NCBI RefSeq assembly: GCF_003346815.1
Contig: NZ_CP031217.1
Location: 992,001-1,056,000 of the forward strand
Direction of reading: 5' to 3'
DNA length: 64,000 nucleotides
Origin: Halarcobacter bivalviorum
GTDB taxonomy: Bacteria > Campylobacterota > Campylobacteria > Campylobacterales > Arcobacteraceae
Shown here: in pieces, positions 32,350 to 51,260 of the stretch
Layout: the number at the start of each line of letters is the position of its first letter
Numbering within the stretch: position 1 is the stretch's first letter
Notes under the pieces: generated by a model
What the model was told of the DNA's origin: nothing
The model's input: only the letters and a program-made list of their open reading frames with translations
Databases searched by the model: none
Made by a program: the position numbers and the translations under genes

Positions 32350-32353
32350 CAAT

Positions 32354-32788
32354 TTAATCAATACTGTAAAAAGAAACTACTAATTCATTCTCATTTTCAG
32401 ATTTCAATATAATATTATGTTCTTTATCTCTATTTTTATAATTGATTACTATATTATCAGGATTTGTTACACCTACACTATTTAGTTTCAAGCCTCTTTG
32501 TATTATTAAATCCATATTTAAAATATCACTTAATGTGATTCTTCCAGGGCATTCATTACAATAGTGTTTTTCTAATATATGTTGAAATCCTGCTCCAGTA
32601 TGTCCTTTTCTTAATATTATTTTCATATCTTTTATATAGAAAGTTGCATTTTTAGTGACATTATTAATGAAGTTGATCATAATTTCTTGATTAGGCGTGA
32701 ACTTTTTCTTTTTCTTTTTTCTTTTAGTTACCTCTATAGAAAGTTCCCTTTTTAATTTTGCTAATCTTTGTTGATACAATTGACTCAC
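32354..32788 (-). CDS. Possible PBECR-like (barnase/EndoU/colicin-type) nuclease
   Basis: The N-terminus is very lysine-rich (KRKKKKKKF). The C-terminal part (KGHTGAGFQHILEKHY ... RITLSDILNMDLIIQRG ... NIILKSENENELVVSFYSID) follows the pattern of phage- and island-encoded PBECR nuclease-fold domains: a G..HI..RH-like histidine pair, a short helix, then strands ending in VVSFY. If correct it would cleave RNA and may be toxic. No antitoxin-like gene directly abuts it. This is a pattern match only; another small nuclease-like fold is possible. Confidence 0.5.
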   Translation of the reverse strand: MSQLYQQRLAKLKRELSIEVTKRKKKKKKFTPNQEIMINFINNVTKNATFYIKDMKIILRKGHTGAGFQHILEKHYCNECPGRITLSDILNMDLIIQRGLKLNSVGVTNPDNIVINYKNRDKEHNIILKSENENELVVSFYSID

Positions 32789-32823
32789 TAAATACCTTTA
32801 TTCCATATTGAAAAATGATTTTA

Positions 32824-33936
32824 TCATATATTATATAAATCCTTAACTGCATCTCTTCCACTGTCAGGACTCAATTTAGCATATCTTAAAGTCATTTTTA
32901 TATCTTTATGATTCATAAGTTTTTGGATTGTAAAGATAGGTGTACCATTTATTGCTAAATGGCTTGCAAATGTATGTCTTAGTGTATGAAATACTATTTT
33001 ATTCTTTCTATCGTTCTCTTCAATACCTTTATTAAATAAATCATTAAGTAATGCTCTTAATCTTCGCTCAGGATTTGAAATAAAGAGTTTATTCTTAATA
33101 TCATTGTTTATGATGTAGTTCTCAAGTAATTGGCTTAATTCCTCTGTTAAAAAAGCTTTATAAGTACTTTTATTTTTAAAGTCTTTAATTGTTAATAGTT
33201 CATGGGTAAAATCAATATCATTTTTTTGTATATTTAATATTGATGATAGTCTAGCTCCTGTATTCAATGCAATTTTATATATTAGGTATAAAACATCATC
33301 ATCCTTAGAACTTTCAAATAAAGTATTTATCTCTCCTTTTGATAAAAATCTTTCCCTTGCATTATCGATTGAAAAGAGTTTTACATACTTTGATACATCA
33401 TTTTTAATGAAGTCATTCTTTACTCCATATTTGATAATTGTTTTAAATAGGTTTAGAATATTATTTATAGTCTTTTCTGCAAGTTTTTTATTATCTTTAG
33501 AGTAGGTTATGTTTTGTAAGTATTTTGAAAAGCTATCAATGTTTGTTTTATTTAAGTTATCAATATCTATATCATTGAAATATACTTTAATATATTTGTT
33601 ATAATTTGATTTATCTGTTAATGTACTTCTTGTGTTATCTCTTTGCTCAAAATAAGATTCTGCAATTTTTTCTATACTTAATATTGATTTCTTTTTTTTA
33701 TTTGAAATTGCAGGTGGTTCTTCTCCTATTCGTTGCTTTGTAATTATTTCATTTCTTATTTGATTACAATAGTTCTCTCTAAAGCCTTCCGAATATTTAC
33801 CAATCTTTTTTTCGACATCTTTTCCATTAGTATCTTTATATCTGATATAATAGGTTTTATCTTTCTTATCATTAGTAAAAGATTCTCTATAAAATACACC
33901 ACTAAATTTAGTTTGAACTCTCTTTGATATTCCCAC
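32824..33936 (-). CDS. Tyrosine recombinase (integrase) of the element
   Basis: The product has an N-terminal arm-binding region (TYYIRYKDTNGKDVEKKIGKY), a SAM-like core-binding domain (about 85-180), and a catalytic domain with NTGARLSSILNIQ (first Arg), HTLRHTFASHL (His-x-x-Arg), LMNHKDIKMT and TLRYAKLS (Tyr nucleophile). The start is GTG at 33936, with GGTGGG six bases upstream; it lies inside the right-hand copy of the 21-nt terminal repeat, so binding of integrase there could control its own synthesis. It faces inward from attR and catalyses integration into tRNA-Glu. Confidence 0.93.
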   Translation of the reverse strand: MGISKRVQTKFSGVFYRESFTNDKKDKTYYIRYKDTNGKDVEKKIGKYSEGFRENYCNQIRNEIITKQRIGEEPPAISNKKKKSILSIEKIAESYFEQRDNTRSTLTDKSNYNKYIKVYFNDIDIDNLNKTNIDSFSKYLQNITYSKDNKKLAEKTINNILNLFKTIIKYGVKNDFIKNDVSKYVKLFSIDNARERFLSKGEINTLFESSKDDDVLYLIYKIALNTGARLSSILNIQKNDIDFTHELLTIKDFKNKSTYKAFLTEELSQLLENYIINNDIKNKLFISNPERRLRALLNDLFNKGIEENDRKNKIVFHTLRHTFASHLAINGTPIFTIQKLMNHKDIKMTLRYAKLSPDSGRDAVKDLYNI

Positions 33937-33950
33937 TTATTTCCCACCTA
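33930..33950 (+). repeat. Right copy of terminal 21-nt direct repeat
   Basis: It matches 24024-24044 at 19 of 21 positions in the same orientation and has the same pair of TTCCCAC units. It spans the GTG start of the integrase gene and lies about 124 nt inside the attR core. Confidence 0.65.
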
Positions 33951-34073
33951 AAATTAATTAATATAGAATATTATAGGTTTTATTGTAAAAAGTCAATTTA
34001 ACACAAGGCTTATAAATAGGCTGTTTAAGATAGTATTTTAATATTTAAGGATTATTGGAAAATATATCAGATA

Positions 34074-34120
34074 AGGATTTCCTCCTGTAGACGCAAGTTC
34101 GAATCTTGCTGGGGTCGCCA
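34074..34120 (+). pseudogene. Displaced 3' half of tRNA-Glu at attR
   Basis: The 47 bases align with 23927-23973 of the intact tRNA with five differences. The T-stem reads GCAAG/CTTGC instead of GGATG/CATCC, so both changed positions are compensated. CCA is kept. It lacks the acceptor 5' strand, D-arm and half the anticodon stem, so it cannot be a tRNA. It is best read as the chromosome's original 3' half, displaced by insertion. Confidence 0.85.
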
Positions 34121-34235: not shown

Positions 34236-34268
34236 TGTGACAGGGATGTGACAAAATAATATTATAAT
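34236..34268 (+). promoter_or_regulatory. Promoter of the sbcD operon with paired TGTGACA motif
   Basis: TGTGACA occurs at 34236-34242 and 34247-34253 (period 11), followed by -10-like TATAAT at 34263-34268. The sbcD ATG follows only 7 nt later, so the message has a very short leader, or the real start is the second Met. Compare 29749-29777. Confidence 0.55.
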
Positions 34269-34274: not shown

Positions 34275-35474
34275 ATGAAAAGTATGAAGGTCTTACACAC
34301 ATCTGATTGGCACTTAGGTCAAAATTTTATGGGAAAAAGTAGAGAAGAAGAGCATAAAGCTTTTTTTTCTTGGTTACTTGAAATAATAAAAGAAAATCAA
34401 ATAGATTTGCTTCTTGTTTCAGGAGATATTTTTGATACAGGAACACCACCAAACTATGCATTAGAACTTTACTACAACTTTTTGAAACAACTATCAAGTA
34501 TAAAGAGTTTAACTACTACAATCATAACAGCTGGAAACCACGACAGTGTTTCTACACTAAAAGCACCAAAGCAACTACTTGAAGCACTAAATGTTCATGT
34601 AATAGTAAATGGTGATGAAGATGAAAACATAATCATTCCTATAAAAGAGGATGATATTACTAAAGCAATAGTTTGTGCAGTACCTTTTTTAAGAGATAGT
34701 GTCATCAGACAATCACTTGGTGGCCAAACAGTAAGCCAAAAAGAAAAACTAGCAACTGATGGTATTAAAGCTTACTATGAAAAAGCCTACAACAAAGCAA
34801 AAGAGTTAAATGAAAACTCTCCAATCATAGCTATGGGACATTTGACTACAGTTGGAAGTAGAAGTAGTGAAAGTGAAAGAGATATTTATATAGGTGGAAC
34901 ACTTGATATAGGTGGAGATTATTTAGCTAGTATGTTTGACTATGTAGCTTTAGGACACTTGCATATCAATCAAACTGTAGGAAACGAACATGTAAGATAC
35001 TCAGGCTCTCCAATACCTCTTAGTTTTTCTGAATCTAAAAACACTCAAAAAGTAAATCTAGTAACTATAGATGAAGATGTAAAAGTAGAAGAGTTAGAAG
35101 TACCACTTACAAAAAAACTACAAGTTATCAAAGGTGATTTGGAAACTATCAAAAAAGAGCTAAAAGCTATCGAAGATAAATCTACTTGGATAGAAGTTCA
35201 TATCAAAGATGATAACCCAATGTTTGCAAACACAGAAATAAGAGAACTAGCTACAAAATTAGAGCTTACAATCCTAGCAGTTAAAATAGAAAAAAGTGAA
35301 AAAGCCCTTCGAGCAAAAGAGTTAAAAGCTATAAGCCTAGATGAATTAAGTGTGCAAGAGGTTTTTGAAAAAAGACTAAAAGATGAAAATATAGAAAATA
35401 AAGAGTTTAAAAAACAGTTATCTCAAACTTTTAATGAAGTGGTCTCAAATCTTCATCAAGAGGAACAAATCTAA
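34275..35474 (+). CDS. sbcD: SbcD, nuclease subunit of the SbcCD DNA-end-processing complex
   Basis: Calcineurin-like phosphoesterase motifs are complete: HTSDWHLGQ, SGDIFDTGTPP, TAGNHDS, MGHLTT and GHLHINQ. SbcD (Mre11 type) with SbcC cleaves hairpins and blocked DNA ends. The 399 residues are normal. Two Met codons (34275 and 34284) are possible starts; neither has a clear ribosome site. It overlaps sbcC by one base (TAATG). Confidence 0.95.
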   Translation: MKSMKVLHTSDWHLGQNFMGKSREEEHKAFFSWLLEIIKENQIDLLLVSGDIFDTGTPPNYALELYYNFLKQLSSIKSLTTTIITAGNHDSVSTLKAPKQLLEALNVHVIVNGDEDENIIIPIKEDDITKAIVCAVPFLRDSVIRQSLGGQTVSQKEKLATDGIKAYYEKAYNKAKELNENSPIIAMGHLTTVGSRSSESERDIYIGGTLDIGGDYLASMFDYVALGHLHINQTVGNEHVRYSGSPIPLSFSESKNTQKVNLVTIDEDVKVEELEVPLTKKLQVIKGDLETIKKELKAIEDKSTWIEVHIKDDNPMFANTEIRELATKLELTILAVKIEKSEKALRAKELKAISLDELSVQEVFEKRLKDENIENKEFKKQLSQTFNEVVSNLHQEEQI

Positions 35475-38400
35475 TGAAGATACTAAAAGTAAGACTACTA
35501 AATATAAACTCCCTAAAAGGTGAGTTTGAAATAGACTTTCAAGAGTTTCTAAAAGATGAATCTCTTTTTGCCATAACAGGACCAACAGGAGCAGGAAAAA
35601 GTACAATTCTTGATGTAATCACTTGTGCTTTATATGGAAGAACAGCCAGACTAACAAACCCAAATGACCTGATGAGTAGACACACAGGTGAGTGTTTATG
35701 TGAGGTGGAGTTTGAGATAAAAGGCAAAATATATAGAAGTTCTTGGGCTCAAAAAAGAGCCAGAAAAAATCCAAATGGAAACTTCCAATCTGCAAAGATG
35801 GAGATAGTAGAACTTGAAACAAATAAAATACTAGAATCATACCTTTCAAAAGTTCCAAAAGTAGTAGAGGAAATCTCAGGGCTTGATTTTGATAGATTTG
35901 TTCAATCTATGATGTTAGCCCAAGGTTCTTTTGATGCCTTTTTAAAAGCCAAAGAAAACGAGCGTTCAAACCTACTAGAAAAGATTACTGGAACATATAT
36001 CTACAAACAAATCTCACAAAGTATCTATGAAACATACTCGTCAAAGAAAAAAGAGATAGAAGCTGATGAGATATCACTAGGAAGTATAGAACTTCTAGAA
36101 CCAAACATAGTAGAAGAGAAAACAAAACAACTAGAAACAAACAAAAAAGAAAAGCAAAACTTAGATAAAAAAGAAAGCGAACTAAAAAAACTATCAAACT
36201 ACCTAGAAACTCTAACTAAACTAGAAGCAGATAGCCAAAAATACAACCAAGAGTTCGAGCAAATAAGCAAAGAGAAAGAGGATAACAAAGAGCAGTTTAC
36301 AAAGCTAGAACTAGCAAACAAAGCCATAAGAATACAAGCCTTAAACCAAGAGAAAAACCAACTAACAAACACAATCACAAGTGATAAACAAAGCTTAGAA
36401 TCTCTACAAAAAGAATACAAAGAGTTAAAAGAACAAATCCAAACAAAAGAGCAAGAGTTAAAACTCTCAAAACAAAGCCTTGAAAAAGAGCAAACAACAT
36501 ACAATGAAAACTACAAAAAACTAAAAGAGTTAAGAACTATAAAAACACAAAGTGATGGTAAAAACCAGCTTTTCATAGAAAAAAGTAAAAAAATCTCACA
36601 ACACCTACAAGAGTTGGCAAATCATTTTGAGATAGCTTTTGAAACACTTCTAAATGATGAAACACAAATAGACAATCTATACAAAAACTTCTCATCAAAT
36701 CTAGACACAAAAAAAGAGCAATTAGAAACTTTAGTAGAACAATACAAAGCCCTAGAAACCCAAACAAAAGATATAAACCAAAAAGAGCAAAACACAAGAG
36801 CCAAACTAAAAGAGATAGAAGCCCTTCTAAAAGCACTAAGTGATTATGAGACACTAAAAGAGCAAATTACACAAGAGCAAAACAAGATAAAAGAGTACAA
36901 CACACAAATAGAAGTTCAAACAAAACTAAACCAAGAAAAAACAAAACTAATAAACCAAATAAACGAAACTCTAACTTCACTAAAACAAACAAGAGAAAAA
37001 GAGCTTCTTATCAAAAACTACGAGCAAGACAGAGCCAAACTAAAAGATGGGCAAGAGTGCTTTTTATGTGGTTCAAAAGAGCATCCATATATAAACCACT
37101 CTTTAAATATAGACACAGAGATAAGTCAAACACTAGCTAAAATAAAAGAGCAAGAAAACTACCTACAAGAGCAAAATAGTGAACTAAACAATGCTCAAAT
37201 AAACCTAGCAAAACTTAGCTCAAAACTAGAAAGCTCAAACCTAGAAATACAAAAACAACAAACTACAAAAGAGCAAATAGAAGAGTACTTTAAATCAAAC
37301 GATTTCAAACTACAAGAAGACTCAAAAGCCACACTGCAAGAGCAAATGCAATTTTGCGAAAAGGAGCTAAAAGAGTATATAACTTTAAGAGAGCAAAAAG
37401 AGTCTTTACAAGCAAAAAAAGAGTCTCTACAAACATCTGTAAACAAAGAAGAGCAAAAACAACAGCAGATAAACACAAGTATAAACACAATAAAAGAGCT
37501 AAAAGAGGAACAATCAAAACTAAAAGAGGAGATAACAAAGCTTCAAACCCAAAGCAAAAGTATCTTAGATATAGAAGATTTAGAAGCTTTTGAGAAAAAT
37601 ATTCAAGAGAGTCTAGACACTGTTTCAAAACATTATAACAGTTTGCAAAACCATCTTTCAAGCCTAAAATCAAAAGATGAATCCCTATCAAAACAGATAA
37701 TACAACTAAACAAAAAACAAGAAGATGACAAACTAAACTTAGTACTTATAAAAGAGAAGTTTGAAAAAGCTTTAGTAGAGTATGGCTTCAACTCGCAAGA
37801 GGAGTTTGAAAAAGCAAACCTACCAAAAGAAGAGTTTGAAACCTTAACAAATCTATGGAAAACCATAGAAGAGAAATACACACAAATACAAACTCTAAAA
37901 ACAGACACAAACAAAAAACTAAAGGAATATAAACTTTTAGAAAAAGAGATAAACCCTACAAATCAAAACAAAGATGATATAAACAAAGAGTTACAAAACC
38001 TACAAAACACAATAGACCAACTACAAGAAACCATAGGAAGTATCTCAAAAGAGTTAGAGATAAATACACAAAATATAAAAAAATCCGAAGACAAAATCAA
38101 ACAACTAGAAAAGAAAAAACAAGCCTTCCAAGTATGGGTAAAACTAAATGATATGATAGGCTCAAGCCAAGGGGATAAGTTCGCCAAATTTGCCCAAGGT
38201 ATAACCCTAGACCAACTAATCTACCTAGCAAACAAACACTTAAGTGTACTAAGTCCAAGATATGAACTCCAAAGAAACACAGAATCAAACAAACTCCTAG
38301 ATATAGAGATAATTGACGGCTTCCAAGGAGACGTGGTAAGAGGTGTAAACACACTCTCAGGAGGAGAAAGCTTTATAGTAAGTCTATCTTTAGCTTTAGG

Positions 38401-38635
38401 ACTATCAAGCCTAGCAAGTCAAAAGATAAGTATTGACTCACTTTTCCTAGATGAAGGGTTTGGAACACTAGACAGCGATAGCCTAGAACTAGCACTAAAT
38501 GCACTAAACCAACTACAAAGTTCAGGGAAAATGGTAGGTGTGATTTCCCATGTGGAAGCATTAAAAGAACGAATCCCATTGCAGATAAAGGTTGAGCCTA
38601 AAGGTGATGGGACGAGTGGATTGGAATTATATTAA
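35474..38635 (+). CDS. sbcC: SbcC, SMC-like ATPase of the SbcCD complex
   Basis: Walker A GPTGAGKST near residue 36 and Walker B SLFLDEGFGTLD near 990 with the signature LSGGESFIVSLSLALG flank two very long coiled coils, with the zinc hook CFLCGS at residues 529-532. This is the Rad50-type partner of SbcD. The coding strand is unusually rich in A and C with little G (many AAC, CTA and ATA codons), unlike the genes on either side. The following gene starts 16 nt after the stop. Confidence 0.95.
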   Translation: MKILKVRLLNINSLKGEFEIDFQEFLKDESLFAITGPTGAGKSTILDVITCALYGRTARLTNPNDLMSRHTGECLCEVEFEIKGKIYRSSWAQKRARKNPNGNFQSAKMEIVELETNKILESYLSKVPKVVEEISGLDFDRFVQSMMLAQGSFDAFLKAKENERSNLLEKITGTYIYKQISQSIYETYSSKKKEIEADEISLGSIELLEPNIVEEKTKQLETNKKEKQNLDKKESELKKLSNYLETLTKLEADSQKYNQEFEQISKEKEDNKEQFTKLELANKAIRIQALNQEKNQLTNTITSDKQSLESLQKEYKELKEQIQTKEQELKLSKQSLEKEQTTYNENYKKLKELRTIKTQSDGKNQLFIEKSKKISQHLQELANHFEIAFETLLNDETQIDNLYKNFSSNLDTKKEQLETLVEQYKALETQTKDINQKEQNTRAKLKEIEALLKALSDYETLKEQITQEQNKIKEYNTQIEVQTKLNQEKTKLINQINETLTSLKQTREKELLIKNYEQDRAKLKDGQECFLCGSKEHPYINHSLNIDTEISQTLAKIKEQENYLQEQNSELNNAQINLAKLSSKLESSNLEIQKQQTTKEQIEEYFKSNDFKLQEDSKATLQEQMQFCEKELKEYITLREQKESLQAKKESLQTSVNKEEQKQQQINTSINTIKELKEEQSKLKEEITKLQTQSKSILDIEDLEAFEKNIQESLDTVSKHYNSLQNHLSSLKSKDESLSKQIIQLNKKQEDDKLNLVLIKEKFEKALVEYGFNSQEEFEKANLPKEEFETLTNLWKTIEEKYTQIQTLKTDTNKKLKEYKLLEKEINPTNQNKDDINKELQNLQNTIDQLQETIGSISKELEINTQNIKKSEDKIKQLEKKKQAFQVWVKLNDMIGSSQGDKFAKFAQGITLDQLIYLANKHLSVLSPRYELQRNTESNKLLDIEIIDGFQGDVVRGVNTLSGGESFIVSLSLALGLSSLASQKISIDSLFLDEGFGTLDSDSLELALNALNQLQSSGKMVGVISHVEALKERIPLQIKVEPKGDGTSGLELY

Positions 38636-38651
38636 AAGGAGTGGTTTAAAA

Positions 38652-41330
38652 ATGTCTATAGGTTCAAATTGGAATAAATGGGATTTACATGTACATACCC
38701 CTGATTCGATTGTTCATGATTATAAGTTTGTTGAACAAGAAAATAGATGGGATGAATATATTGATGCATTAGAAAAACTACCATCAGATATAAAAGTATT
38801 AGGTATAAACGATTATTGGTTTTTAGATGGTTATAAAAAAGTATTAGAATATAAAAATGCAGGCAGGCTTGAAAATATTGAACTGATTTTACCTGTGGTT
38901 GAAGTTCGGTTAAAAGAATTTGTTGGTAATAAATCTCTTAATAAAATTAATTATCATATCCTATTTTCTAATGAATTAACTGTGAATGAAATTGAAACTC
39001 ATTTTTTAAATAGAATTGATATAAAAACGAATTTAGATGGAAATGAAATGGCATTTGGTCATTTATGTGATGACAATTTTGAAAAGCTTGGAAAAGAAAT
39101 TGAAAGAACTACTCCAGCAAATAAAAGACAAGGATTACCTTCTCATAAAGAAATAGGTTTTAATAACTTTACTATTGATTTAAATAAGTTAGATGAATTA
39201 TTGAAAAATGATTATTTAAAAGGTAAGTTTTTAAGAATTATAGGTAAAAGTGAATGGGATGATTTCAGATGGGAATCAAGTGCTGGAGATAAAAAATCTA
39301 TTATTAATAATTGTGATTTTGTGTTTAGTGCTTCACCTACGATTGAAAATGCTAAAAAATCAAAACAAAGTTTAATTGACCAAGGTGTGAATAATAGATT
39401 ATTACATTGTAGTGATTCTCATAAATTTTATATTGGTAAATATGATAGTAAAGTTTTAGGACATTGTTTTACATGGTTAAAAGCTGATTGTACATTTGAA
39501 GGTTTAAAACAAGTTTTATATGAATCTGATTCTAGAATTTATTTAGGTGAAAATATACCACCGAAAGCAGTACATAAATTAGATAAAGTAATTATAGATT
39601 TCGATAATGATATATTGATTGGAAATGAAAAATTTTGTTTTTCAGGAAAACATGAAGTTTCTTTTAGTCCTTATTTTACTTGCATTATCGGAGGAAGAGG
39701 TTCTGGAAAGAGTACTTTAGTAAATTTAGTTGCTGAGAAAAATGGGCAAAAACAAGATTCATTAAAACAATTAAAGAGTAATAAATCGATAGATGAATCA
39801 ATTGGTTTTTATCCATTAAGCTTGTCAAATTTAGAATATATTCCTCAAAATAGAATTGAAGATTTTGCAAAGGATAGTCCTAAATTTACTGCATCTATTT
39901 TTGAAAGGTTAGATAGAGAATCTGATAATGAATTAATAAGTATTGAAAAAGAACTAGAAAAAGAGCTTGAAAAATTAGATAGTCAAATTGCATTATTAGA
40001 TGATAGGGATAATTTATCAATTAAACTTGACGAAATAAAGAATGATATACAAACAAAAGAAGAGTTAGTCAAAGCTTTCAGTGATAAAGAATATCTTCAG
40101 AATAAAGAAAAAGTAACTAAAATTTCAAAAGACATTGAAATAATAAATAATTCAAAGACTGATTATAATAATCTTTTAGTAGCATTGAAAAAGATTCTTA
40201 ATGAAAATGAAGAAAAGATTATAAAAAATAAGTATGATGAGAAATATAATTTACTTTTAACAAAAATTGAAAGCTTAGTAAATATATTTAGTGTAAATAC
40301 TTTTTATAATGAAGTTAAAGGTTATGAAAAGTTAGTAACAAATCAAGATGAAATCGCTGAAAATATAAAAACATTTTTAAAAAGTAAAAATTTAAGTGAT
40401 GAAAATATTAAAGATGTGACAAATGCTAATATCGATATTGCAAAGTTAACATCTGAAAAAGATAATATCAACGTTAAATTAGCAAAAGTTATTAAACAAA
40501 TTGAAGAATATAAATATGATAATTTAGATAAATTAAGAGAAAGCTTTTCTTCGAAAATTAATGAACAATTAATTCTAGTAAATGAAAAATTTCTTAAAAT
40601 TAAAGAATCAAATCCTGATGACATAAAAGAGATAAAGATTGAATATCTTGTATCTACTGAAATAAAAGAGCAATTAATTAATAAATTAAATAAATCTTTA
40701 GAATTAAATTATAATTCAAGAAGTCCATTTTACGATTATCTTTTTAGAGTGTCATTTTCAGAAGTTCTTTTAATTGAAAATTGTGAAGATTTTATATCTC
40801 AGGTGGGTGAAAACTGTAATACAAATACAAATGCATATCAAGAACTGGAGACAATTTTTACAAATGAAAAAGCATTTGAGATTTATAAATTGTGTATTAA
40901 ATATTGTCAGTATGATTTTAAGTCCAATAAAGTGTTAAAAGTTTTATATGATAATAAAAGTTTAGAAGATTCATCTTTTGGACAAAGATGTACTGCTGCA
41001 ATAGTTATTCTTTTATCTTTAGGAAATAATCCTATTATTTTAGATGAGCCAGAGGCTCATCTTGACAGTTCTTTAATTGCAAATTATTTGGTTAGTTTAA
41101 TAAAAGAACAGAAACAAAACAGACAAATAATTTTTGCTACTCATAATGCAAATTTTGTAATAAATGCTGATGCTGACTTAATAATTAAATTAAATAATGA
41201 AAATGGAATTACAACTAGTGAGTCTTTCACAATTGAAGATTTAGAACATAGAAATAGTTTATTAAATCTAGAAGGTGGTTTAGATGCTTTTGAAAAAAGA
41301 GAAAAGAAATATAATATTAGGAAAATATAA
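38652..41330 (+). CDS. PHP-domain/AAA (SMC-like) ATPase, TrlF-like
   Basis: The preferred start is ATG 38652 after AAAAGGAG. An earlier Met at 38592 would overlap sbcC by 44 nt and add residues with no family match. Residues 1-300 are a PHP phosphoesterase domain (WDLHVHTPDS metal ligands; HCSDSH; GHCFTWLKAD). Residues about 330-890 form an ABC/SMC-type ATPase with Walker A GGRGSGKST near 347, coiled coils (about 425-650), and NPIILDEPEAHLDSS near 792 with an AIVILLSLG line before it. This matches TrlF-type PHP-ATPase fusions. PHP domains hydrolyse phosphoesters, so a nuclease or DNA-repair/defence role is likely. Codon use differs from sbcC, suggesting separate acquisition. Confidence 0.8.
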   Translation: MSIGSNWNKWDLHVHTPDSIVHDYKFVEQENRWDEYIDALEKLPSDIKVLGINDYWFLDGYKKVLEYKNAGRLENIELILPVVEVRLKEFVGNKSLNKINYHILFSNELTVNEIETHFLNRIDIKTNLDGNEMAFGHLCDDNFEKLGKEIERTTPANKRQGLPSHKEIGFNNFTIDLNKLDELLKNDYLKGKFLRIIGKSEWDDFRWESSAGDKKSIINNCDFVFSASPTIENAKKSKQSLIDQGVNNRLLHCSDSHKFYIGKYDSKVLGHCFTWLKADCTFEGLKQVLYESDSRIYLGENIPPKAVHKLDKVIIDFDNDILIGNEKFCFSGKHEVSFSPYFTCIIGGRGSGKSTLVNLVAEKNGQKQDSLKQLKSNKSIDESIGFYPLSLSNLEYIPQNRIEDFAKDSPKFTASIFERLDRESDNELISIEKELEKELEKLDSQIALLDDRDNLSIKLDEIKNDIQTKEELVKAFSDKEYLQNKEKVTKISKDIEIINNSKTDYNNLLVALKKILNENEEKIIKNKYDEKYNLLLTKIESLVNIFSVNTFYNEVKGYEKLVTNQDEIAENIKTFLKSKNLSDENIKDVTNANIDIAKLTSEKDNINVKLAKVIKQIEEYKYDNLDKLRESFSSKINEQLILVNEKFLKIKESNPDDIKEIKIEYLVSTEIKEQLINKLNKSLELNYNSRSPFYDYLFRVSFSEVLLIENCEDFISQVGENCNTNTNAYQELETIFTNEKAFEIYKLCIKYCQYDFKSNKVLKVLYDNKSLEDSSFGQRCTAAIVILLSLGNNPIILDEPEAHLDSSLIANYLVSLIKEQKQNRQIIFATHNANFVINADADLIIKLNNENGITTSESFTIEDLEHRNSLLNLEGGLDAFEKREKKYNIRKI

Positions 41331-41366
41331 ATGTCATTAATAATTACTACTTATGGGGTAAAATAG

Positions 41367-42848
41367 ATGACTCTCTCTAAATCCCTCTACACAAAAGGCA
41401 TCCAATGCCCCAAAGCACTTTGGCTTAAAAAAGTAAAGAGCTGTGTTTTAACCCCACCCGATGAGCAAGCACAGGCTATATTTGAAACTGGAAATATAGT
41501 AGGAGACTTAGCTTGCCAGCTTTTCCCTGATGGAAAAGAAGTGCCATACACTACAAATTATGATGAGATGATGGCTACTACAAAAGAGTGGGTGGAAGAT
41601 GGTGTATCAAATATCTACGAAGCTACTTTTAGCTATGAGGGCATACTTATCATGGTAGATATTTTAAAAGTAGAAGATGATGGAGTATCTATCTATGAGG
41701 TTAAAAGTTCAACTGAAGTAAAAGATATATATCTACATGATGTATCTATTCAGTATTATGTTTTACAAAACTTAGGCTTTAGCATAAAAAATGCAAGTGT
41801 AGTACACATAAACAATGAGTATGTCAGAGGTGAGTCTTTAGAACTAGATAAACTATTTAAAATAGTTGATGTCACTAGTGAAGTGCAAAGCTTACAATTA
41901 AATATCCCAATCATATTAAAAGAGTTTGAAACCTATTTAGAAGATAAAGTAAATGAACCTGATATAGATATAGGAAAACATTGTAACAAACCTTATGAGT
42001 GTGATGCTAAAAACTATTGTTGGAAAGTTCAAAAACAGATACCTGAGTACTCTATCTTTAATATTTTCAATCTAGGAAGTAAAAAGCAAGTTGAGTTATA
42101 CAATCAAGGTATCATAGATATAGAAGATATCCCAGCAGATTTTGATATGACTGCAAATCAAGCTCAAGCAGTAGAAAACTACAAATCAAAAGCAAACTAT
42201 ATAGACAAAGAAAATATCAAAGCCTTTTTAGAAAACCTCATATACCCAATCTATCACTTAGACTTTGAAACCTACCAACAAGCCATACCACAATACAAAG
42301 GTATAAAACCCTTCGAGCAAATCCCTTTTCAATATTCACTTCATATAGAGTATGAAGATGGAACTTTGGAGCATAAAGAGTATTTGAGTAAAGATAGCAT
42401 AGATAGCAGATATGAGTTAGCATTAAAGTTATTTGAAGATATCCCAAGTGATGTTACAGTATTGGCTTACAATATGAGTTTTGAAAAAGGTGTGATAAAA
42501 AGATTAGCCAACCTTTTCCCAGACCTTAGCTCACACCTACTAGCGATAAATGAAAATATGCAAGACTTAATGACACCTTTCCAAAAGAAATGGTATGTAA
42601 CACCAAGTATGCAAGGAGGTTACTCTATCAAGTATGTATTGCCAGCACTTGTACCAGAGTTTGAAAAAGCCTACAAAGAGTTAGAAGGTGTACAAAATGG
42701 AAGCCAAGCTATGAATACCTTTGCGAATCTTAGTAAACTAAATAAAGAAGAAAAACAAAAGATGAGAACTTCTCTTTTAGAGTATTGTAAACTTGATACT
42801 TTGGCTATGGTGAAGGTGTTGGAATCTTTAAAGGTAATAAAAACTTGA
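41367..42848 (+). CDS. DUF2779 nuclease: Cas4/AddB-like domain plus RNase H-fold exonuclease domain
   Basis: The N-terminal half resembles Cas4-type PD-(D/E)XK nucleases: one Cys at IQCPKALW, the motif MVDILKVEDDGVSIYEVKSS (Asp...Glu-x-Lys), and a cluster HCNKPYECDAKNYCW that with the first Cys could hold a 4Fe-4S site. The C-terminal half is a DUF2779 region with a DEDD-exonuclease look: YHLDFETYQ (Asp-x-Glu), VLAYNMSFEK and EYCKLDTLAM. Two nuclease activities in one chain are therefore predicted. Its composition resembles sbcC. It overlaps the helicase gene by 4 nt. Confidence 0.78.
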   Translation: MTLSKSLYTKGIQCPKALWLKKVKSCVLTPPDEQAQAIFETGNIVGDLACQLFPDGKEVPYTTNYDEMMATTKEWVEDGVSNIYEATFSYEGILIMVDILKVEDDGVSIYEVKSSTEVKDIYLHDVSIQYYVLQNLGFSIKNASVVHINNEYVRGESLELDKLFKIVDVTSEVQSLQLNIPIILKEFETYLEDKVNEPDIDIGKHCNKPYECDAKNYCWKVQKQIPEYSIFNIFNLGSKKQVELYNQGIIDIEDIPADFDMTANQAQAVENYKSKANYIDKENIKAFLENLIYPIYHLDFETYQQAIPQYKGIKPFEQIPFQYSLHIEYEDGTLEHKEYLSKDSIDSRYELALKLFEDIPSDVTVLAYNMSFEKGVIKRLANLFPDLSSHLLAINENMQDLMTPFQKKWYVTPSMQGGYSIKYVLPALVPEFEKAYKELEGVQNGSQAMNTFANLSKLNKEEKQKMRTSLLEYCKLDTLAMVKVLESLKVIKT

Positions 42849-45800
42849 AAAACATAATTTTTTGTGATCTTGAAGCAAGTATCAAAACTAAAAAAATAAA
42901 TGAAATAGGAATAATCTATCAAGATAGAGAATTAAAAACAACTTCTGTAGAAGAGTGTAAAGGATTTATTGAGTCTTGCGAAGCAACATATATTTCAGGG
43001 CATAATTTTATTGATTTTGATATGCGATTTATAAAAGAGTCAAGTTTATATCAAAGTATTAAAGATTATAAAATTATAGACACCTTACCTTTATCTCTTC
43101 TTCTTTTTAATGAGAAAACGATTCATAGTCTACCAAAGAATTATAAAACAGAAGATGATTTCCAGAATAATCCAGTAGAAGATTCTAAACTTTCTAAAGT
43201 ATTATTTGAAAAATTAGTTGATAGATTTAAATCTTTACCTAGTCAGGCCCAAAATATTTTTTATTCACTTTTAAAAGATGATAAATATTTTGGTGGGTTT
43301 TTTCAGTATATAAATAAAGATATAAATTTAGAATATTTAGATGAAGATGAATTGTATGATTTAATAGTTAGTTTACATAATAAGGTTATTGTTAATTTTG
43401 ATTATTTAAAAGATGCTGTCTTAATTAATAAAAAAGTACAATTAGCATATATCTTGGCTCTTTTAACTCCATATATTGAGATAAAATCACATCCTCCTAA
43501 AATACTATATTCATATCCTGAAATTGTTGAAATACAAAAAAAGTTGTGTTTTGATATAGAGAAAGCACAAGATGAACTTGCAGATTTTTCAAAAGAAGTT
43601 TTTGGATTTGGTACATTTAGACCCTTCCCCAGATTAAATGCCGGTGTATTGGATGATCCAACCATTTCACAACGAGATATGGTTGAAGCTTCTTTAAGGG
43701 ATGAGTCTTTTTTAACAGTATTACCTACTGGTGGTGGAAAAACTTTTACCTTTTGGCTACCTGCTATTTGCAAAGCTAAATCATATAAAAGTTTGACAGT
43801 TGTTATTTCTCCATTACAAGCTTTGATAGAAGACCATATTAAAAGTTTTAATTCAAAAGTTGCAAATTATAAAGCTGTAGCAATTAGTGGGTTTATGAGT
43901 CCATTAGAACGAAGTGAAGCAGTTGAGCAAGTGATTAATGGTGAAGCTGATATTTTATACATTGCTCCTGAATCTTTACGTTCAAATACTATTTTTAATA
44001 TATTAAAAAATAGATTGATTGAAAGATTTGTTATTGATGAAGCACATTGCTTATCTACCTGGGGAAATGATTTTCGACAAGATTATTATTATATTTGTGA
44101 GTATATAAAAGAGTTAACTAAGGAAAAAAACTTTCAAGAGCATATACCTATATCATGTTTTACAGCAACAGCGAAACCAAGTGTTATACAAGATATAGAA
44201 AAATATTTTTTAGAAGGTTTAAATATAAAGCTTGATAAATATTTGGCAATCCCTGAGAGAAAAAACTTAAAATATAAATCAATTCCTTCAAAAAGTAAAG
44301 ATAAATATATTGAGCTTTTAAAACTTATAAATGAACATGATGGTTCTACTTTGGTTTATATACCATCATCAACAAAAGATTGTGATGATGTTGCAAAACG
44401 TTTAGCCTTGGATACTCAAAAAGTAGTAAAATCTTTTCATTCAAAAATAGATTCTCAAGAAAAGATGCAAATATTAAAACAATATATAGAAAATGATATT
44501 GAAATTATTGTAGCAACAACTGCATTTGGTATGGGGGTTGATAAATCAAATATTACAAATGTTATACATTATGAAATATCTGATTCTTTGGAAAACTATG
44601 CTCAAGAAGCTGGTAGAGGAGCAAGAGATGAAAGTCTTGAAGCCTTTTGTCCTATACTTTTTGATGAAGACGATTTAGATAAACATTTTAATTCATTAAA
44701 TAGAAGTAAATTAACTGCCAGTGAAGTAAATTCAATTTTTTTGGTGATAAAGAAATCTAAAGGTCAAGTTTTAAACAAAACTGCTTTTGAAATAGCAAAA
44801 GAAGCGGGATGGGATGTTGAAGACAGCTCTTTAGATTATAAGACAAAAGTCAAAACAGCATTACTAGAACTAGAAAGAGAAGGATATATTAGTCGAAAGA
44901 GAAACAAAACAAGCTTTTTTGCAGATTCTATTGCTTCAAAATGTATGGAAAAACTTACTCTAAAATTGGAAAAATCCAATTTTAATGAAGAAGAAAAAGA
45001 CAGAATAAGATTTATTCTTAAAAGTATAATTGGAAGAGGAAAACCTGAATCGATTCAAGTAGATGAATTAGCACATACATTAGGTTATCCAAAGCATGTA
45101 ATCTCTTTAGTTATAAATCAGCTAAAACAGATGGAAATATTAGGTGATAGTAAAGATTTAAGTTTGGAAATTAGTATATTTAGTATTAATCAATTTAAAA
45201 AAGTTAGAGATATTGAAATTTTATTGTTTGAATATTTATCTTCTTTAAACACCAACAAAATAAAAATAAGAGAACTAAATGAAGAGTTACATACAAGTAA
45301 ACTTATAACTAAAAATGAAACAGAGTTGATAAAATCAATAATAAAAAACTGGAGAAGTAAATCAAACTTTATATTTAACAGAAGAAATAGAGAACATGAT
45401 TTATGGTATTTTAAATTTGAAAATCTTGAAAATATCAAAGATACAATTGAAAAAAGACATAAAATAGCTGAAGAAGTTATATTTTTGCTGACAAAAGATT
45501 TAGATTCTAAAAAGAAAGAAGAAATTGTATTTTCACTCAAAGAATTACATAAAAACTTGGATGAAAAATATACTATTGAAGATATAGACAAAACACTACT
45601 TTATTTACACCATTTAAATATTTTAGAATTGTTAACAGGTAGATTTATTAATTATAGTCCAATGAATATTTATAAAGAAGACAAAATTGAAACAAAAAGA
45701 AAATATACAAAAAATGAATATAAACAAAGACTTGAAAATCATTATTTGACAAAAATTGAATCTATACATATTATGGGAGAATATGCAAAAAGGCTTAAAT

Positions 45801-47641
45801 ATGATGATCATAAAGCAATATTGTTTCTAAAGGATTATTTTACATTATCATATGAAAAATTTAAAGATAAATATAAATTATTAAAAGAGAAGATTTCTAA
45901 ACCTATTACACAAAATCGTTACAATAAGATATTTGAAAAAATGTCAGAAGAACAAAAAATAATCATTAATGATACAAAAACAAAAGCTATGATGATTTTA
46001 GCAGGTCCAGGAAGTGGAAAAACAAAAGTATTAGTTCATAAAATTGCTTCAATGATTTTAACAGAAGATATAAAGCCTGAACAATTTATGATGCTCACTT
46101 TTTCTAAAACTGCAAAATTGGAATTTAAAAGTAGGCTAAATAGCTTAATGGGTGCTTTGTCTTATGATGTTGAGATTCAAACCTTCCATTCTTATGCTTT
46201 AAAGTTAATAGCTAGGCTTGTAAAAAAGGAAAATAAAGATATCCTTGAAAATGCTATTGAAGAAGCAACAAGACAGATAAATGAAAATGAAATATTATTG
46301 CCACATATTACTGTTTTGGTGCTTGATGAATTTCAGGATATAAATGAAAAAAGTTTTGAGTTTGTTAAAGCTATATACAAAGCACAAAATAATGATATAC
46401 GGATAATTGCAGTAGGAGATGATGATCAATGTATTATGGAACACATTGGTGCTAAAGTAGATTTTGTAGATAGGTTTAGAAATGAGTTTGGTAATGATGA
46501 TGAAGGAAAAAACTTATTTCAACAATATGAGTTGAGTACAAATTTTAGAAGTAAGCAAAACATTGTAAAATATTCTAATACATTTATTACAGGAGTAAGT
46601 AAAAGATATAAATTACAACCTTTACATGCTAATAGTTCTGAAAATGGTACGGTAAAGATTTACTCATGTATATCTTCAAATCTAGCTTTACCTTTAGTTG
46701 AATTAATTAAAGAAGAAGAGTTAATAAATGAAATTGCAGTTTTAGCACATACAAATGAAATGGTTATGGATATTTACTCACTTTTACAAGAAAATAATTT
46801 AAATGTTAAATATTTAATAGATAGAGATAAGTTTGAATTAAAAAATATAATTGAATTAGTTGATTTTGATAATGCGTTAAATAGTTATTTATTGGAAGAT
46901 GAAATATCTTATAAAGATAGTTATTTTGAAAATGCATTAAATATGATTGAATCAAAATATAAACAATCAGAAAATTTGAGTTTGGTTTATAAAGTAGTTG
47001 ATAAGTTTTTAAGCGAAAGTGACAATTATTATATTTCTCAATGGTTATCATATCTTGAAGAAATAAAACTTGAAGATTTTGAAAATACAAAAAATAAGAT
47101 TGTTGTATCAACAATACATAAATCAAAAGGAATGGAGTTTGATAAGGTTTATTTGTTAGTTAATCAAAATCCAAATAAAGATGTAGATAAAAGACTTTTT
47201 TATGTGGGTATGACTCGGGCAAAAAGTCAACTCAATATAATAAGATATGGTAATAATATAGAAAATAAAAAAAATTATGTAAAATATCTTTTTGATGAAA
47301 AAGAGTATTTTTCAGAGAGTAAAACATTTACGTATATTATGTCACTTAGTGATATAAAGTTAGGATTTGATTATGAAAAGTATGGTAACTACAATAATCT
47401 ATATTCAGGTTCTATTCTAAAAATTGATAGAAAGCAAAATTTTGATAATTTTTGTTTATTAGATAATAATAAAGTCATTGGAGTATTTTCAAATAACTTT
47501 CAATCTTTTATTGAAAAGAAGATTGAAGAAAATTTTGTATTTGAAACATGCATTTTAGAATATGTAGTTTTATGGGAAGGTAAAGATTTTAAAAATAAAG
47601 TAAAACATCCTTTATGTAAAATTATAATGAAAAAGAATTAA
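42845..47641 (+). CDS. Exonuclease-RecQ-UvrD triple fusion helicase
   Basis: Translation starts at TTG 42845, overlapping the previous stop (TTGA). Residues 1-130 look like a DEDD 3'-5' exonuclease (FCDLEAS, SGHNFIDFDMRFI, NPVEDSKLS). Residues about 270-650 are a RecQ-type helicase: PTGGGKT near 295, IDEAHCLSTWGNDFRQDY near 398, TAFGMGVDKSNI and YAQEAGRGARDE. A winged-helix-like region follows. Residues about 1030-1480 are a UvrD/Rep-type helicase: AGPGSGKT near 1053, VLDEFQDI near 1160, GDDDQCI, and YVGMTRAKSQL near 1452. RecQ and UvrD motors normally are separate proteins of about 600-700 residues. The combination with a nuclease implies processing of branched or resected DNA. Confidence 0.85.
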   Translation: MKNIIFCDLEASIKTKKINEIGIIYQDRELKTTSVEECKGFIESCEATYISGHNFIDFDMRFIKESSLYQSIKDYKIIDTLPLSLLLFNEKTIHSLPKNYKTEDDFQNNPVEDSKLSKVLFEKLVDRFKSLPSQAQNIFYSLLKDDKYFGGFFQYINKDINLEYLDEDELYDLIVSLHNKVIVNFDYLKDAVLINKKVQLAYILALLTPYIEIKSHPPKILYSYPEIVEIQKKLCFDIEKAQDELADFSKEVFGFGTFRPFPRLNAGVLDDPTISQRDMVEASLRDESFLTVLPTGGGKTFTFWLPAICKAKSYKSLTVVISPLQALIEDHIKSFNSKVANYKAVAISGFMSPLERSEAVEQVINGEADILYIAPESLRSNTIFNILKNRLIERFVIDEAHCLSTWGNDFRQDYYYICEYIKELTKEKNFQEHIPISCFTATAKPSVIQDIEKYFLEGLNIKLDKYLAIPERKNLKYKSIPSKSKDKYIELLKLINEHDGSTLVYIPSSTKDCDDVAKRLALDTQKVVKSFHSKIDSQEKMQILKQYIENDIEIIVATTAFGMGVDKSNITNVIHYEISDSLENYAQEAGRGARDESLEAFCPILFDEDDLDKHFNSLNRSKLTASEVNSIFLVIKKSKGQVLNKTAFEIAKEAGWDVEDSSLDYKTKVKTALLELEREGYISRKRNKTSFFADSIASKCMEKLTLKLEKSNFNEEEKDRIRFILKSIIGRGKPESIQVDELAHTLGYPKHVISLVINQLKQMEILGDSKDLSLEISIFSINQFKKVRDIEILLFEYLSSLNTNKIKIRELNEELHTSKLITKNETELIKSIIKNWRSKSNFIFNRRNREHDLWYFKFENLENIKDTIEKRHKIAEEVIFLLTKDLDSKKKEEIVFSLKELHKNLDEKYTIEDIDKTLLYLHHLNILELLTGRFINYSPMNIYKEDKIETKRKYTKNEYKQRLENHYLTKIESIHIMGEYAKRLKYDDHKAILFLKDYFTLSYEKFKDKYKLLKEKISKPITQNRYNKIFEKMSEEQKIIINDTKTKAMMILAGPGSGKTKVLVHKIASMILTEDIKPEQFMMLTFSKTAKLEFKSRLNSLMGALSYDVEIQTFHSYALKLIARLVKKENKDILENAIEEATRQINENEILLPHITVLVLDEFQDINEKSFEFVKAIYKAQNNDIRIIAVGDDDQCIMEHIGAKVDFVDRFRNEFGNDDEGKNLFQQYELSTNFRSKQNIVKYSNTFITGVSKRYKLQPLHANSSENGTVKIYSCISSNLALPLVELIKEEELINEIAVLAHTNEMVMDIYSLLQENNLNVKYLIDRDKFELKNIIELVDFDNALNSYLLEDEISYKDSYFENALNMIESKYKQSENLSLVYKVVDKFLSESDNYYISQWLSYLEEIKLEDFENTKNKIVVSTIHKSKGMEFDKVYLLVNQNPNKDVDKRLFYVGMTRAKSQLNIIRYGNNIENKKNYVKYLFDEKEYFSESKTFTYIMSLSDIKLGFDYEKYGNYNNLYSGSILKIDRKQNFDNFCLLDNNKVIGVFSNNFQSFIEKKIEENFVFETCILEYVVLWEGKDFKNKVKHPLCKIIMKKN

Positions 47642-49811: not shown

Positions 49812-51260
49812 ATGATTGATTATAAAAAAAGACTTACTACTTTTAGGCAGATGAATGAGATTGATATAATAGATTACTCAATAGAGAGTGATAGAGGAAG
49901 GATTCTCTCTTCTGCTGCTTTAAGAAGGCTTCAAAAAAGAACTCAGGTTTTTGCTCTTGAGTTAAATGCTTCAATTCGTTCTAGGCTTACTCACTCGATA
50001 GAAGTAGCTCAAAATGCTAGATTTATAGCAAAAACTATTTTAGCTAAATTAAAAGATGAAGGTTTAGATAAATATGGTTTAGAAGAGTTAGAAAATGCTT
50101 TTATTTCTACTGCTGAGATGACAAGTTTACTTCATGATATAGGAAATCCTCCCTTTGGTCATTTTGCAGAACAGACTATAAACAAATGGATGAGCAAAAA
50201 TGCTCTACCTATTTTTGAAGAGTTTGAAGCTTTAAAAGATGAAAATAAAAAGCTTAAAGAGATGCTCTCTTTTGACCTTTGCAATTATGATGGAAATGCA
50301 CAAGCCTTAAGAGTGATAATGAAATTACAAAGGATGAATCTATCTTATACTCAGATTATCTCAGTCTTAAAGTATACAAGAGGGGCATATGAAGAGAAAC
50401 CAAAAAAAGATTCAAATCTATCATATGTTATGAAAAAGCCTGGTTTTTATTATAGTGAAAAAGACTCTATCTTAAAGATACAAGAAAAGCTTGGGATTAA
50501 AGCAGGGCATAGATTCCCAATCACATATATAATGGAAGCTGCTGATGATATCTCTTATCTTACTGCTGATTTAGAAGATTCTCATGAAAAGGGTATTTTA
50601 AGTCTTAAAAAAATATATAGACTTATTACTGAAGAGTGTAAAAAACAAGAAGAAGAGTATTTACTTAAGATTGTAGAAGAAGAGTATACAAAGGCTCAAG
50701 CCGGAGAAAAACCTTATCAATTTAATATGTTTTTTACAATTATGAGAGCTAGATTAGTTGGCTCTTTAGTTCGTCATGTGGCAGAAGTATATATTCAAAA
50801 TCATGAAAAGGTTTTTGAAGGAAGTTTTAATAGTGCACTATTGGAGTATGATGAGCAAAGTAAATATTATAAGGCTATAAAGGTACTTCAAACTATCTCT
50901 ACTAAATATATCTATCAAAATAAAGATGTACAGACTTTAGAGTTACAAAGTTATAAGATTATCAACTCTTTATTTGACAATTATAAGCCTCTTTTAGAAC
51001 TAAAAACTGAAGATTTTTTAGCTCTTTTAGAAGATAAAAAAATAGATTGTTTTATCTCTATGAGACTGATAAAAAGAATCTCTTCAAAACAAATTGTTGC
51101 CTATGAAAATGATATAAATGCTTTAGATAAAGAGGACAAAGAAGCTTTTAAAATCTTAGAATGGTATCATAGAGTTAGGCTTATTATTGATTATATTAGT
51201 GGTATGACTGATGACTATGCCCTAGAGGAGTATAAAGTTTTATCTGCTTTAAATAAGTAA
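49812..51260 (+). CDS. dgt: dGTPase-family dNTP triphosphohydrolase, chromosomal copy
   Basis: The family motifs are complete: SSAALRRLQKRTQVF, SRLTHSIEVAQNARF near residue 57, LLHDIGNPPFGHFAEQ near 107-122, and MEAADDISYLTADLEDSHEKG near 237-257. The enzyme removes triphosphate from dGTP or other dNTPs, adjusting precursor pools. Its 482 residues are close to the usual Dgt length. It differs strongly from the island copy at 30268, so the two did not arise by recent duplication. It follows the exonuclease gene closely and has AAAAAAG-type weak upstream purines at the ATG. Confidence 0.9.
   Translation: MIDYKKRLTTFRQMNEIDIIDYSIESDRGRILSSAALRRLQKRTQVFALELNASIRSRLTHSIEVAQNARFIAKTILAKLKDEGLDKYGLEELENAFISTAEMTSLLHDIGNPPFGHFAEQTINKWMSKNALPIFEEFEALKDENKKLKEMLSFDLCNYDGNAQALRVIMKLQRMNLSYTQIISVLKYTRGAYEEKPKKDSNLSYVMKKPGFYYSEKDSILKIQEKLGIKAGHRFPITYIMEAADDISYLTADLEDSHEKGILSLKKIYRLITEECKKQEEEYLLKIVEEEYTKAQAGEKPYQFNMFFTIMRARLVGSLVRHVAEVYIQNHEKVFEGSFNSALLEYDEQSKYYKAIKVLQTISTKYIYQNKDVQTLELQSYKIINSLFDNYKPLLELKTEDFLALLEDKKIDCFISMRLIKRISSKQIVAYENDINALDKEDKEAFKILEWYHRVRLIIDYISGMTDDYALEEYKVLSALNK

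What the first reader, a model, noticed from the sequence alone, without database searches (positions are those of the whole stretch)
34275..47641. Five-gene nuclease/helicase operon: SbcD, SbcC, PHP-ATPase, DUF2779, Exo-RecQ-UvrD
Five genes overlap or lie within 36 nt over 13.4 kb. They provide an Mre11/Rad50 pair, a PHP phosphoesterase with its own SMC-like ATPase, a Cas4-like plus RNase H-fold nuclease, and a two-motor helicase with an exonuclease. Each family is known, but this set in one operon, beside an island and under a special promoter, looks like a dedicated DNA-end-processing or anti-phage machine.
Basis: partly seen in the sequence, partly recalled or inferred. Interest (0 to 1): 0.75.

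Follow-up and report, generated by a model that had tools for sequence, protein, structure and literature searches.

The report
Nuclease operon with swappable phage-defence slots
In Arcobacter-like bacteria a fixed set of DNA-cutting genes (SbcD, SbcC and a Cas4-like exonuclease) frames a slot into which one anti-phage system after another has been swapped at exact gene boundaries, so the five-gene run in this window is one version of a plug-in defence locus and not a fixed machine.

Summary
The five genes are real, intact and tightly packed (34275-47641), but they are not a conserved five-gene machine. Across Campylobacterales (chromosomes and Aliarcobacter plasmids) two parts stay constant on one strand: an Mre11/Rad50-type pair (sbcD-sbcC here) and the DUF2779 gene (Cas4-like nuclease fused to a DEDD exonuclease). 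What lies between them, and after DUF2779, is exchanged. In relatives whose sbcC and DUF2779 are ~91% identical to the window's at DNA level, the slot holds OLD, Mokosh, Lamassu, Gabija, Hachiman-like or other candidate systems; on plasmids, Qat or SIR2-HerA. Of 52 locus pairs with both frame genes >=88% identical, 47 share no cargo. DNA homology stops within 30 nt of the sbcC stop (135/139 pairs) and resumes within 30 nt of the DUF2779 start (330/341). Slot genes are co-directional (98 of 99). An empty-slot form exists. The window's cargo is a TrlF-family PHP-ATPase (slot 1) and the Exo-RecQ-UvrD helicase (slot 2). I read the locus as an operon-nested, two-slot defence hotspot with a selected nuclease frame (dN/dS 0.10-0.19). 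The exchange mechanism and any cooperation of frame and cargo are inferred. No paper found describes it; nearest precedent: rlo/mlo inserts of C. jejuni hsd loci.

The parts
34076..34120 (+). Partial copy of the tRNA-Glu 3' half (attR-like right end of the neighbouring integrase island); shows that the operon lies outside that island
   Evidence: 45 nt with 5 mismatches to tRNA-Glu 23898-23973 (tRNA)
34236..34268 (+). Promoter-like element TGTGAC-N5-TGTGAC-N10-TATAAT
   Evidence: Same element upstream of sbcD in several other chromosomal and plasmid frames; 53 matches in 104 family genomes, none for the reversed control pattern
34275..35474 (+). sbcD (Mre11-type nuclease subunit), left frame gene
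   Evidence: TIGR00619 230 bits, cut-off 77.7; intact phosphoesterase motifs; dN/dS 0.13-0.19
35474..38635 (+). sbcC (Rad50-type ATPase), left frame gene; homology with relatives ends at its stop codon
   Evidence: Pfam AAA_23 and SbcC_Walker_B; Walker A, CxxC hook, LSGGE, LDE; edge statistics; dN/dS 0.10-0.12
38652..41330 (+). Slot-1 cargo: TrlF-family PHP phosphoesterase + SMC-like ATPase (longest ORF from TTG 38592)
   Evidence: NF045780 449 bits, cut-off 350; related genes in slot 1 of L037, L042, L073, L078
41367..42848 (+). DUF2779: Cas4-like Fe-S PD-(D/E)XK nuclease fused to a DEDD-type exonuclease; central frame gene
   Evidence: PF11074 156 bits; invariant Cys14/206/212/218, D98/E111/K113, D299/E301/D400/Y473/D477; model pLDDT 90.4 with Cas4 structures as best PDB matches
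42845..47641 (+). Slot-2 cargo: exonuclease-RecQ-UvrD fusion (1598 aa)
   Evidence: Pfam/NCBIfam domains; directly behind DUF2779 also in L046 (79%) and L081 (48%); alone beside parA on pACIB
49812..51260 (+). dGTPase (PRK04926 type), right neighbour shared by chromosomes and plasmids; directly behind DUF2779 where slot 2 is empty
   Evidence: NF003429 537 bits, cut-off 405; plasmid order; L048, L071, L073, L078, L096; also present in genomes without the frame

Best explanation
The locus is a modular, operon-nested anti-phage locus. A nuclease frame under purifying selection (SbcD-SbcC, or in other lineages a different Mre11/Rad50-like pair, then DUF2779, a Cas4-like nuclease fused to a 3'-5' exonuclease) holds two slots, one between sbcC and DUF2779 and one behind DUF2779. 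Complete defence systems are swapped in and out of the slots and are probably transcribed from the frame's promoter. In the window slot 1 carries a TrlF-type PHP-ATPase and slot 2 an exonuclease-RecQ-UvrD helicase. Shown: the frame, the swapping, the sharp gene-boundary junctions, the co-direction, the purifying selection and the defence identity of much of the cargo. Inferred: that the cargo protects the cell here; that the frame nucleases attack invading DNA ends while the cargo supplies recognition or a second line; and that swapping occurs by homologous recombination in sbcC and DUF2779, with occasional illegitimate joining that leaves truncated DUF2779 5' copies.
For: Same order and strand of sbcD and DUF2779, 5.9-11.9 kb apart, in nearly every family genome with an intact sbcD whose contig reaches that far; G105 is a true exception. 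Defence cargo in slot 1: Gabija (633/915 bits), Mokosh (626), Lamassu (225; 706), HamB (756), HerA (556), PDC-S06 (880), PDC-S53 (1266), PDC-M49A (928), Qat annotated. 341 of 362 related locus pairs share no cargo; edges lie within 30 nt of the gene ends in 330/341 and 135/139. Slot genes 98:1 co-directional against 178:134 in the flanks, p 7e-19; median gap 10 nt. sbcC and DUF2779 identities correlate (r 0.85) across 21 loci although the DNA between them differs. dN/dS 0.10-0.19. Empty slot 1 in L070. A second Mre11/Rad50 pair in the same position in other families.
Against: Several DUF2779 loci have no Mre11/Rad50 pair, and a few intact sbcD genes show no DUF2779 (contig ends, plus one real case, G105). 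Some slots hold genes with no recognised defence function. PADLOC hits among AAA ATPases cross-match (OLD/GajA/AriA), so some names are approximate. No matched control of PADLOC content at other variable loci was run. No functional data exist for any frame gene here. The known anti-phage relative Ppl is only distantly related to the window's TrlF-type protein (107 bits against a cut-off of 1000).
Confidence: 0.78

Rival explanations
1. A dedicated five-gene DNA-end-processing machine: the five proteins work together as one complex or pathway.
For: Tight packing and short overlaps; every gene encodes a DNA-end-acting enzyme or a relative of one; DUF2779 followed directly by Exo-RecQ-UvrD recurs in L046 and L081.
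Against: Genes 3 and 5 are replaced by unrelated genes in relatives with ~91% identical frames; Exo-RecQ-UvrD occurs without the others on pACIB and elsewhere; full-length gene 5 was found in only 3 of 79 relatives.
Confidence: 0.06
2. An ordinary variable locus with passive flanks: sbcCD and DUF2779 are plain DNA-repair genes, and defence genes accumulate between them because conserved flanks allow homologous exchange. Frame and cargo do not cooperate.
For: Swapping, stacking and truncated DUF2779 5' copies need only recombination in conserved flanks; DUF2779 loci without any Mre11/Rad50 pair keep cargo; published hotspots elsewhere are defined by conserved flanks (e.g. PMC12629846).
Against: Passive flanks do not explain why unrelated cargo is almost always on the frame's strand with ~10-nt gaps, why two different Mre11/Rad50 pairs sit at the same place, or why sbcD is accessory (full length in 24 of 104 family genomes) and almost always tied to DUF2779.
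Confidence: 0.4
3. A site-specific cassette system (integron-like or recombinase-driven) that inserts cargo at a fixed site at the end of sbcC or the start of DUF2779.
For: Razor-sharp edges; strongly similar DNA at the sbcC 3' end and DUF2779 5' end; sbcC-tail scars in loci that lost sbcCD.
Against: Synonymous codons at those ends are not clearly more conserved than in the gene bodies (0.82 and 0.71-0.80 against means of 0.71 and 0.69, sd 0.08-0.09). Truncated DUF2779 copies end at many positions (about 45 to 390 nt). No recombinase is regularly present in the slots.
Confidence: 0.05

Closest known systems
Campylobacter jejuni type I restriction (hsd) loci with rlo and mlo inserts (Miller et al. 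2005, as cited in PMC5183652 and PMC2610378)
   Same: Accessory ORFs, including RloC-type Rad50-like anticodon nucleases, sit between the genes of a nuclease operon, in the same bacterial order.
   Different: There the frame is a type I restriction system; here it is Mre11/Rad50 plus a Cas4-exonuclease fusion, with two slots, full known defence systems as cargo, and plasmid as well as chromosomal copies.
Defence hotspots of genomic islands (e.g. the 11 Pseudomonas hotspots, PMC12629846)
   Same: Conserved flanks, rapidly exchanged defence cargo.
   Different: The flanks here are nuclease genes of one operon, cargo is co-directional with ~10-nt gaps, and no integrase or island core is part of the frame.
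SbcCD (bacterial Mre11-Rad50)
   Same: SbcD and SbcC carry the standard motifs; SbcCD processes DNA ends and acts against phage N15 telomeres unless TelN protects them (PMC12624138).
   Different: Accessory in this family (full length in 24 of 104 genomes) and tied to DUF2779 and defence cargo.
DUF2779 (PF11074), RNase H-like family F.17 with a PD-(D/E)XK domain (PMC3985635)
   Same: The window protein has both domains and their catalytic residues.
   Different: None of the papers found links it to defence; it has no match in PADLOC.
TrlF-family and Ppl PHP-ATPases
   Same: Window gene 3 passes the TrlF family cut-off; a cargo protein in L042 resembles both TrlF and Ppl (489 and 456 bits).
   Different: The window protein is far below the Ppl cut-off; I found no paper on TrlF and phage.

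Membership tests
SbcCD | SbcD subunit: TIGR00619 above cut-off with intact phosphoesterase motifs | tested here: met
   230 bits against 77.7; DxH, GDxxD, GNHD, GHxH
SbcCD | SbcC subunit: TIGR00618 above cut-off | tested here: not met
   362 bits against 478.5; Pfam AAA_23 and SbcC_Walker_B are above their cut-offs and Walker A, CxxC hook, LSGGE are present, so it is an SbcC-like Rad50 outside the curated subfamily limit
TrlF family AAA-like ATPase | NF045780 above cut-off over full length | tested here: met
   449.5 bits against 350, residues 24-908; HxH and SDSH of the PHP site, Walker A and B
Ppl anti-phage protein | NF042955 above cut-off | tested here: not met
   107 bits against 1000
DUF2779 / Cas4-like exonuclease | PF11074 domain, Cas4-type PD-(D/E)XK core with four cysteines, DEDD exonuclease residues | tested here: met
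   Fe-S cluster and nuclease activity not testable here
RecQ family helicase (gene 5, part) | TIGR00614 above cut-off | tested here: met
   235 bits against 219.8
Dpd (7-deazaguanine) system, DpdF helicase | NF041063 above cut-off and other dpd genes nearby | tested here: not met
   193 bits against 550; no other dpd gene among the neighbours annotated with Pfam
Gabija (GajAB) | GajA nuclease next to a GajB helicase in the window | tested here: not met
   UvrD part of gene 5 resembles GajB (148 bits) but no GajA adjoins it
Defence hotspot (variable defence cargo between conserved flanks) | Related flanks, different cargo, cargo rich in defence systems | tested here: met
Defence hotspot (variable defence cargo between conserved flanks) | Cargo confers protection | not testable with these tools
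   needs phage assays

The most novel reading that the evidence does not exclude
The frame is a working core of a plug-in immune system: SbcCD and the Cas4-exonuclease fusion act on invading DNA ends, and the exchanged cargo modules are alternative sensors or effectors that depend on that core (for example, triggered by its products or by its inhibition by phage proteins). A stronger and less likely form is that the Cas4-like nuclease and SbcCD also help capture new modules into the slots.
Probability: 0.25. Interest if true: 0.9.

Novelty: new variant of a known kind. Interest (0 to 1): 0.7.

Why it matters
It turns an odd five-gene operon into a general rule for Campylobacterales genomes and plasmids: find DUF2779 with an Mre11/Rad50 pair and read what lies between. 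That gives a defence-discovery address (69 cargo families among 98 slot genes in 30 loci, many without a name), gives DUF2779, a domain of unknown function, a testable role, and allows a direct test of whether a shared nuclease core cooperates with exchangeable defence modules.

Tried and rejected
Fixed five-gene machine: rejected by cargo swapping. DNA-level recombination site at the frame ends: the 15-nt sbcC tail and the DUF2779 head looked suspiciously conserved, but a codon test showed nothing clear beyond the gene bodies, and truncated copies end at varied positions. Operon as part of the tRNA-Glu integrase island: rejected, it lies outside the tRNA copy. dGTPase as a strict frame gene: not claimed, because it is also resident in genomes without the frame. 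Promoter element as a defence-specific regulon: rejected, it also precedes response-regulator and lipoprotein genes. Literature searches for TrlF with phage, Arcobacter defence hotspots and SbcCD hotspots found nothing. One promoter-pattern search used a wrong spacing and was repeated. One PADLOC call failed on coordinates and was repeated.
Full report
What is there. The five ORFs reported are present and intact at 34275-47641 on the + strand. Families: SbcD (TIGR00619, 230 bits), SbcC-like (Pfam AAA_23 and SbcC_Walker_B above cut-off, but below the curated SbcC limit), TrlF-family PHP-ATPase (NF045780, 449 bits, cut-off 350), DUF2779 (PF11074), and an exonuclease-RecQ-UvrD fusion (the exonuclease part rests on a DLE motif at residue 8, not on a family hit). 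The start of the PHP-ATPase is probably ATG 38652, behind AAGGAG, rather than TTG 38592. Active-site motifs are intact in all five.

Surroundings. An integrase gene (32824-33936, minus strand) ends an island that begins at tRNA-Glu 23898-23973 and stops at a 45-nt copy of the tRNA 3' half at 34076-34120. The operon starts about 155 nt beyond that copy, so it is next to the island and not inside it. Its promoter region carries TGTGAC-N5-TGTGAC-N10-TATAAT (34236-34268). The same element precedes sbcD in several other chromosomes and plasmids. In 104 family genomes it has 53 matches with up to one mismatch, against none for the reversed pattern. It is not specific to defence, because it also precedes response-regulator and lipoprotein genes. 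Direct repeats 11 bp apart suggest an OmpR-type regulator, and the Aliarcobacter plasmids carry a response regulator near the frame; this link is inference.

The five genes do not travel as a set. On Aliarcobacter plasmids the order is sbcD, sbcC, something, DUF2779, something, dGTPase. The first something is the Qat system on pACRY43158, a NACHT protein on pM830MA, SIR2 + DUF87 + DUF6602 + a Mokosh-like pair on pAFAEC, and an AAA protein of a PADLOC candidate system on p133. In 104 genomes of the window's family, full-length sbcD genes were found in 24, and DUF2779 lay downstream on the same strand 5.9-11.9 kb away in nearly all that could be judged; some exceptions are at contig ends and one (G105) is real. 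About half of the family (53 of 104 genomes) has a DUF2779 match, remnants included, often without sbcCD.

Cargo swaps at gene boundaries. In loci L022-L027 sbcD-sbcC is 91-92% and DUF2779 about 91% identical to the window at DNA level, yet nothing between them matches apart from short DUF2779 5' remnants. Over all pairs of loci with DUF2779 at least 80% identical (362), 341 share no cargo family. In those pairs the alignment begins within 30 nt of the DUF2779 start in 330 of 341 and ends within 30 nt of the sbcC stop in 135 of 139. Of 52 pairs with both frame genes at least 88% identical, 47 share no cargo. Slot-1 genes are 98 to 1 on the frame's strand, against 178 to 134 for the flanking genes of the same loci (Fisher p 7e-19), with a median gap of 10 nt. 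They fall into 69 families among 98 genes. Pairs are not independent, and counts depend on mechanical ORF calling.

What the cargo is. Slot 1: Gabija GajA+GajB (L026, 633 and 915 bits; also L058), Mokosh MkoA+MkoB (L024, 626 and 181; also L042 and pAFAEC), Lamassu (L025 LmuB 225; L067 LmuB 706; L059, L033), Hachiman HamB (L038, 756; a more distant one in L022), SIR2-HerA-type HerA (L046, 556), CBASS-type E1-E2 (L039, 642, beside a broken sbcD), OLD-type (L023, L024, L035, L048, L051), PADLOC candidates PDC-S06 (L018), PDC-S53 (L029), PDC-M49A with PDC-M62A (L034), HEC-06 (L028), and a nucleoside deoxyribosyltransferase with a dGTPase (L030). TrlF-type PHP-ATPases recur in L037, L042, L073 and L078, so window gene 3 is one recurrent cargo. 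Slot 2 holds Mokosh-like helicases (L015, L023, L025, L036), a DrmD-like helicase (L034) and IetA (L025), or the Exo-RecQ-UvrD gene (window, L046, L081). That gene also stands alone near plasmid partition genes or elsewhere. PADLOC names among AAA ATPases cross-match, so OLD/GajA labels are approximate.

The frame. sbcD, sbcC and DUF2779 are under purifying selection (dN/dS 0.10-0.19), and sbcC and DUF2779 identities co-vary across 21 loci (r 0.85); shared host ancestry contributes to that. In other families of the order a different Mre11/Rad50-like pair (about 372 and 789 aa; Mre11 115 bits, Rad50 174 bits, both below their curated cut-offs) sits in the sbcCD position before the cargo and DUF2779 (L067, L068, L072-L079). 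One locus (L070) has sbcD-sbcC followed directly by DUF2779: an empty slot 1. DUF2779 next to dGTPase with nothing between occurs in five loci. In G004, at the same chromosomal place (upstream of the same small gene and RNase T), the promoter precedes an unrelated operon without any frame gene.

DUF2779. In 22 sequences four cysteines (14, 206, 212, 218), D98/E111/K113 and D299/E301/D400/Y473/D477 are invariant. The model has mean pLDDT 90.4, and the best solved matches are Cas4 in Cas4-Cas1-Cas2 complexes and a free-standing Cas4 (E about 1e-4 to 1e-3, TM-scores modest because only the N-terminal half matches). The C-terminal half belongs to the RNase H-like 3'-5' exonuclease clade in a published classification that also notes the PD-(D/E)XK domain (PMC3985635).

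How exchange may happen (inference). Truncated copies of the DUF2779 5' end, each beginning at or near the start codon and ending after about 45 to 390 nt, lie upstream of the intact gene in nine loci, mostly between stacked cargo modules, and sbcC-tail scars remain in loci that lost sbcCD. This fits an incoming fragment anchored by homology in DUF2779 (or sbcC) with the other end joined illegitimately. A fixed recombination site is unlikely.

How it may work (inference). SbcCD attacks DNA ends and hairpins and acts against phage N15 unless TelN protects the ends; lambda Gam also inhibits it (PMC12624138). A nuclease frame plus an exchangeable second line would resemble PrrC and RloC beside restriction systems (PMC2610378). 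Whether frame and cargo cooperate is untested; the plainest alternative is a hotspot with passive flanks.

Known or new. The nearest precedent is the C. jejuni hsd locus with rlo/mlo inserts (PMC5183652). Searches of the held open-access library found no description of this locus; subscription papers are mostly missing there. I file it as a new variant of a known kind (operon-nested defence hotspot).

Noticed in passing
window 23974-34120: A roughly 10-kb integrase island between tRNA-Glu and a partial tRNA copy, carrying a HTH protein, a TrbL/VirB6-like protein, a bacterial PH-domain protein and an HD phosphohydrolase (30268-31530) with the same HD and HD_assoc domains as the dGTPase at 49812.
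   Followed up: partly
window 551-13950: A 2737-aa RTX calcium-binding repeat protein followed by a TPR protein, a type I secretion ABC transporter and an HlyD-type fusion protein: a type I secretion cluster.
   Followed up: no
L107 (G004:C2:212400-219650): Same promoter and same chromosomal neighbour genes as the window, but the frame is replaced by a 1106-aa protein with weak similarity to a PADLOC candidate protein (PDC-M62A) and a 405-aa protein.
   Followed up: partly
104 family genomes, e.g. L109, L111, L113, L118: TGTGAC-N5-TGTGAC-N10-TATAAT precedes response-regulator genes of one type (227-231 aa) in several genomes, which suggests an autoregulated OmpR-type regulon.
   Followed up: partly
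L022, L027, L030, L044 just upstream of DUF2779: A shared ~95-nt intergenic stretch (GGGTCGTCCCGTAGGAATTT...) precedes DUF2779 behind unrelated cargo in four or five loci; its role is unknown.
   Followed up: partly
L019 (pCNAC48) 15856-23805: Macrolide resistance genes ere(B), msr(D) and mef(A) with transposases are inserted where slot 2 and the dGTPase lie on sister plasmids.
   Followed up: no
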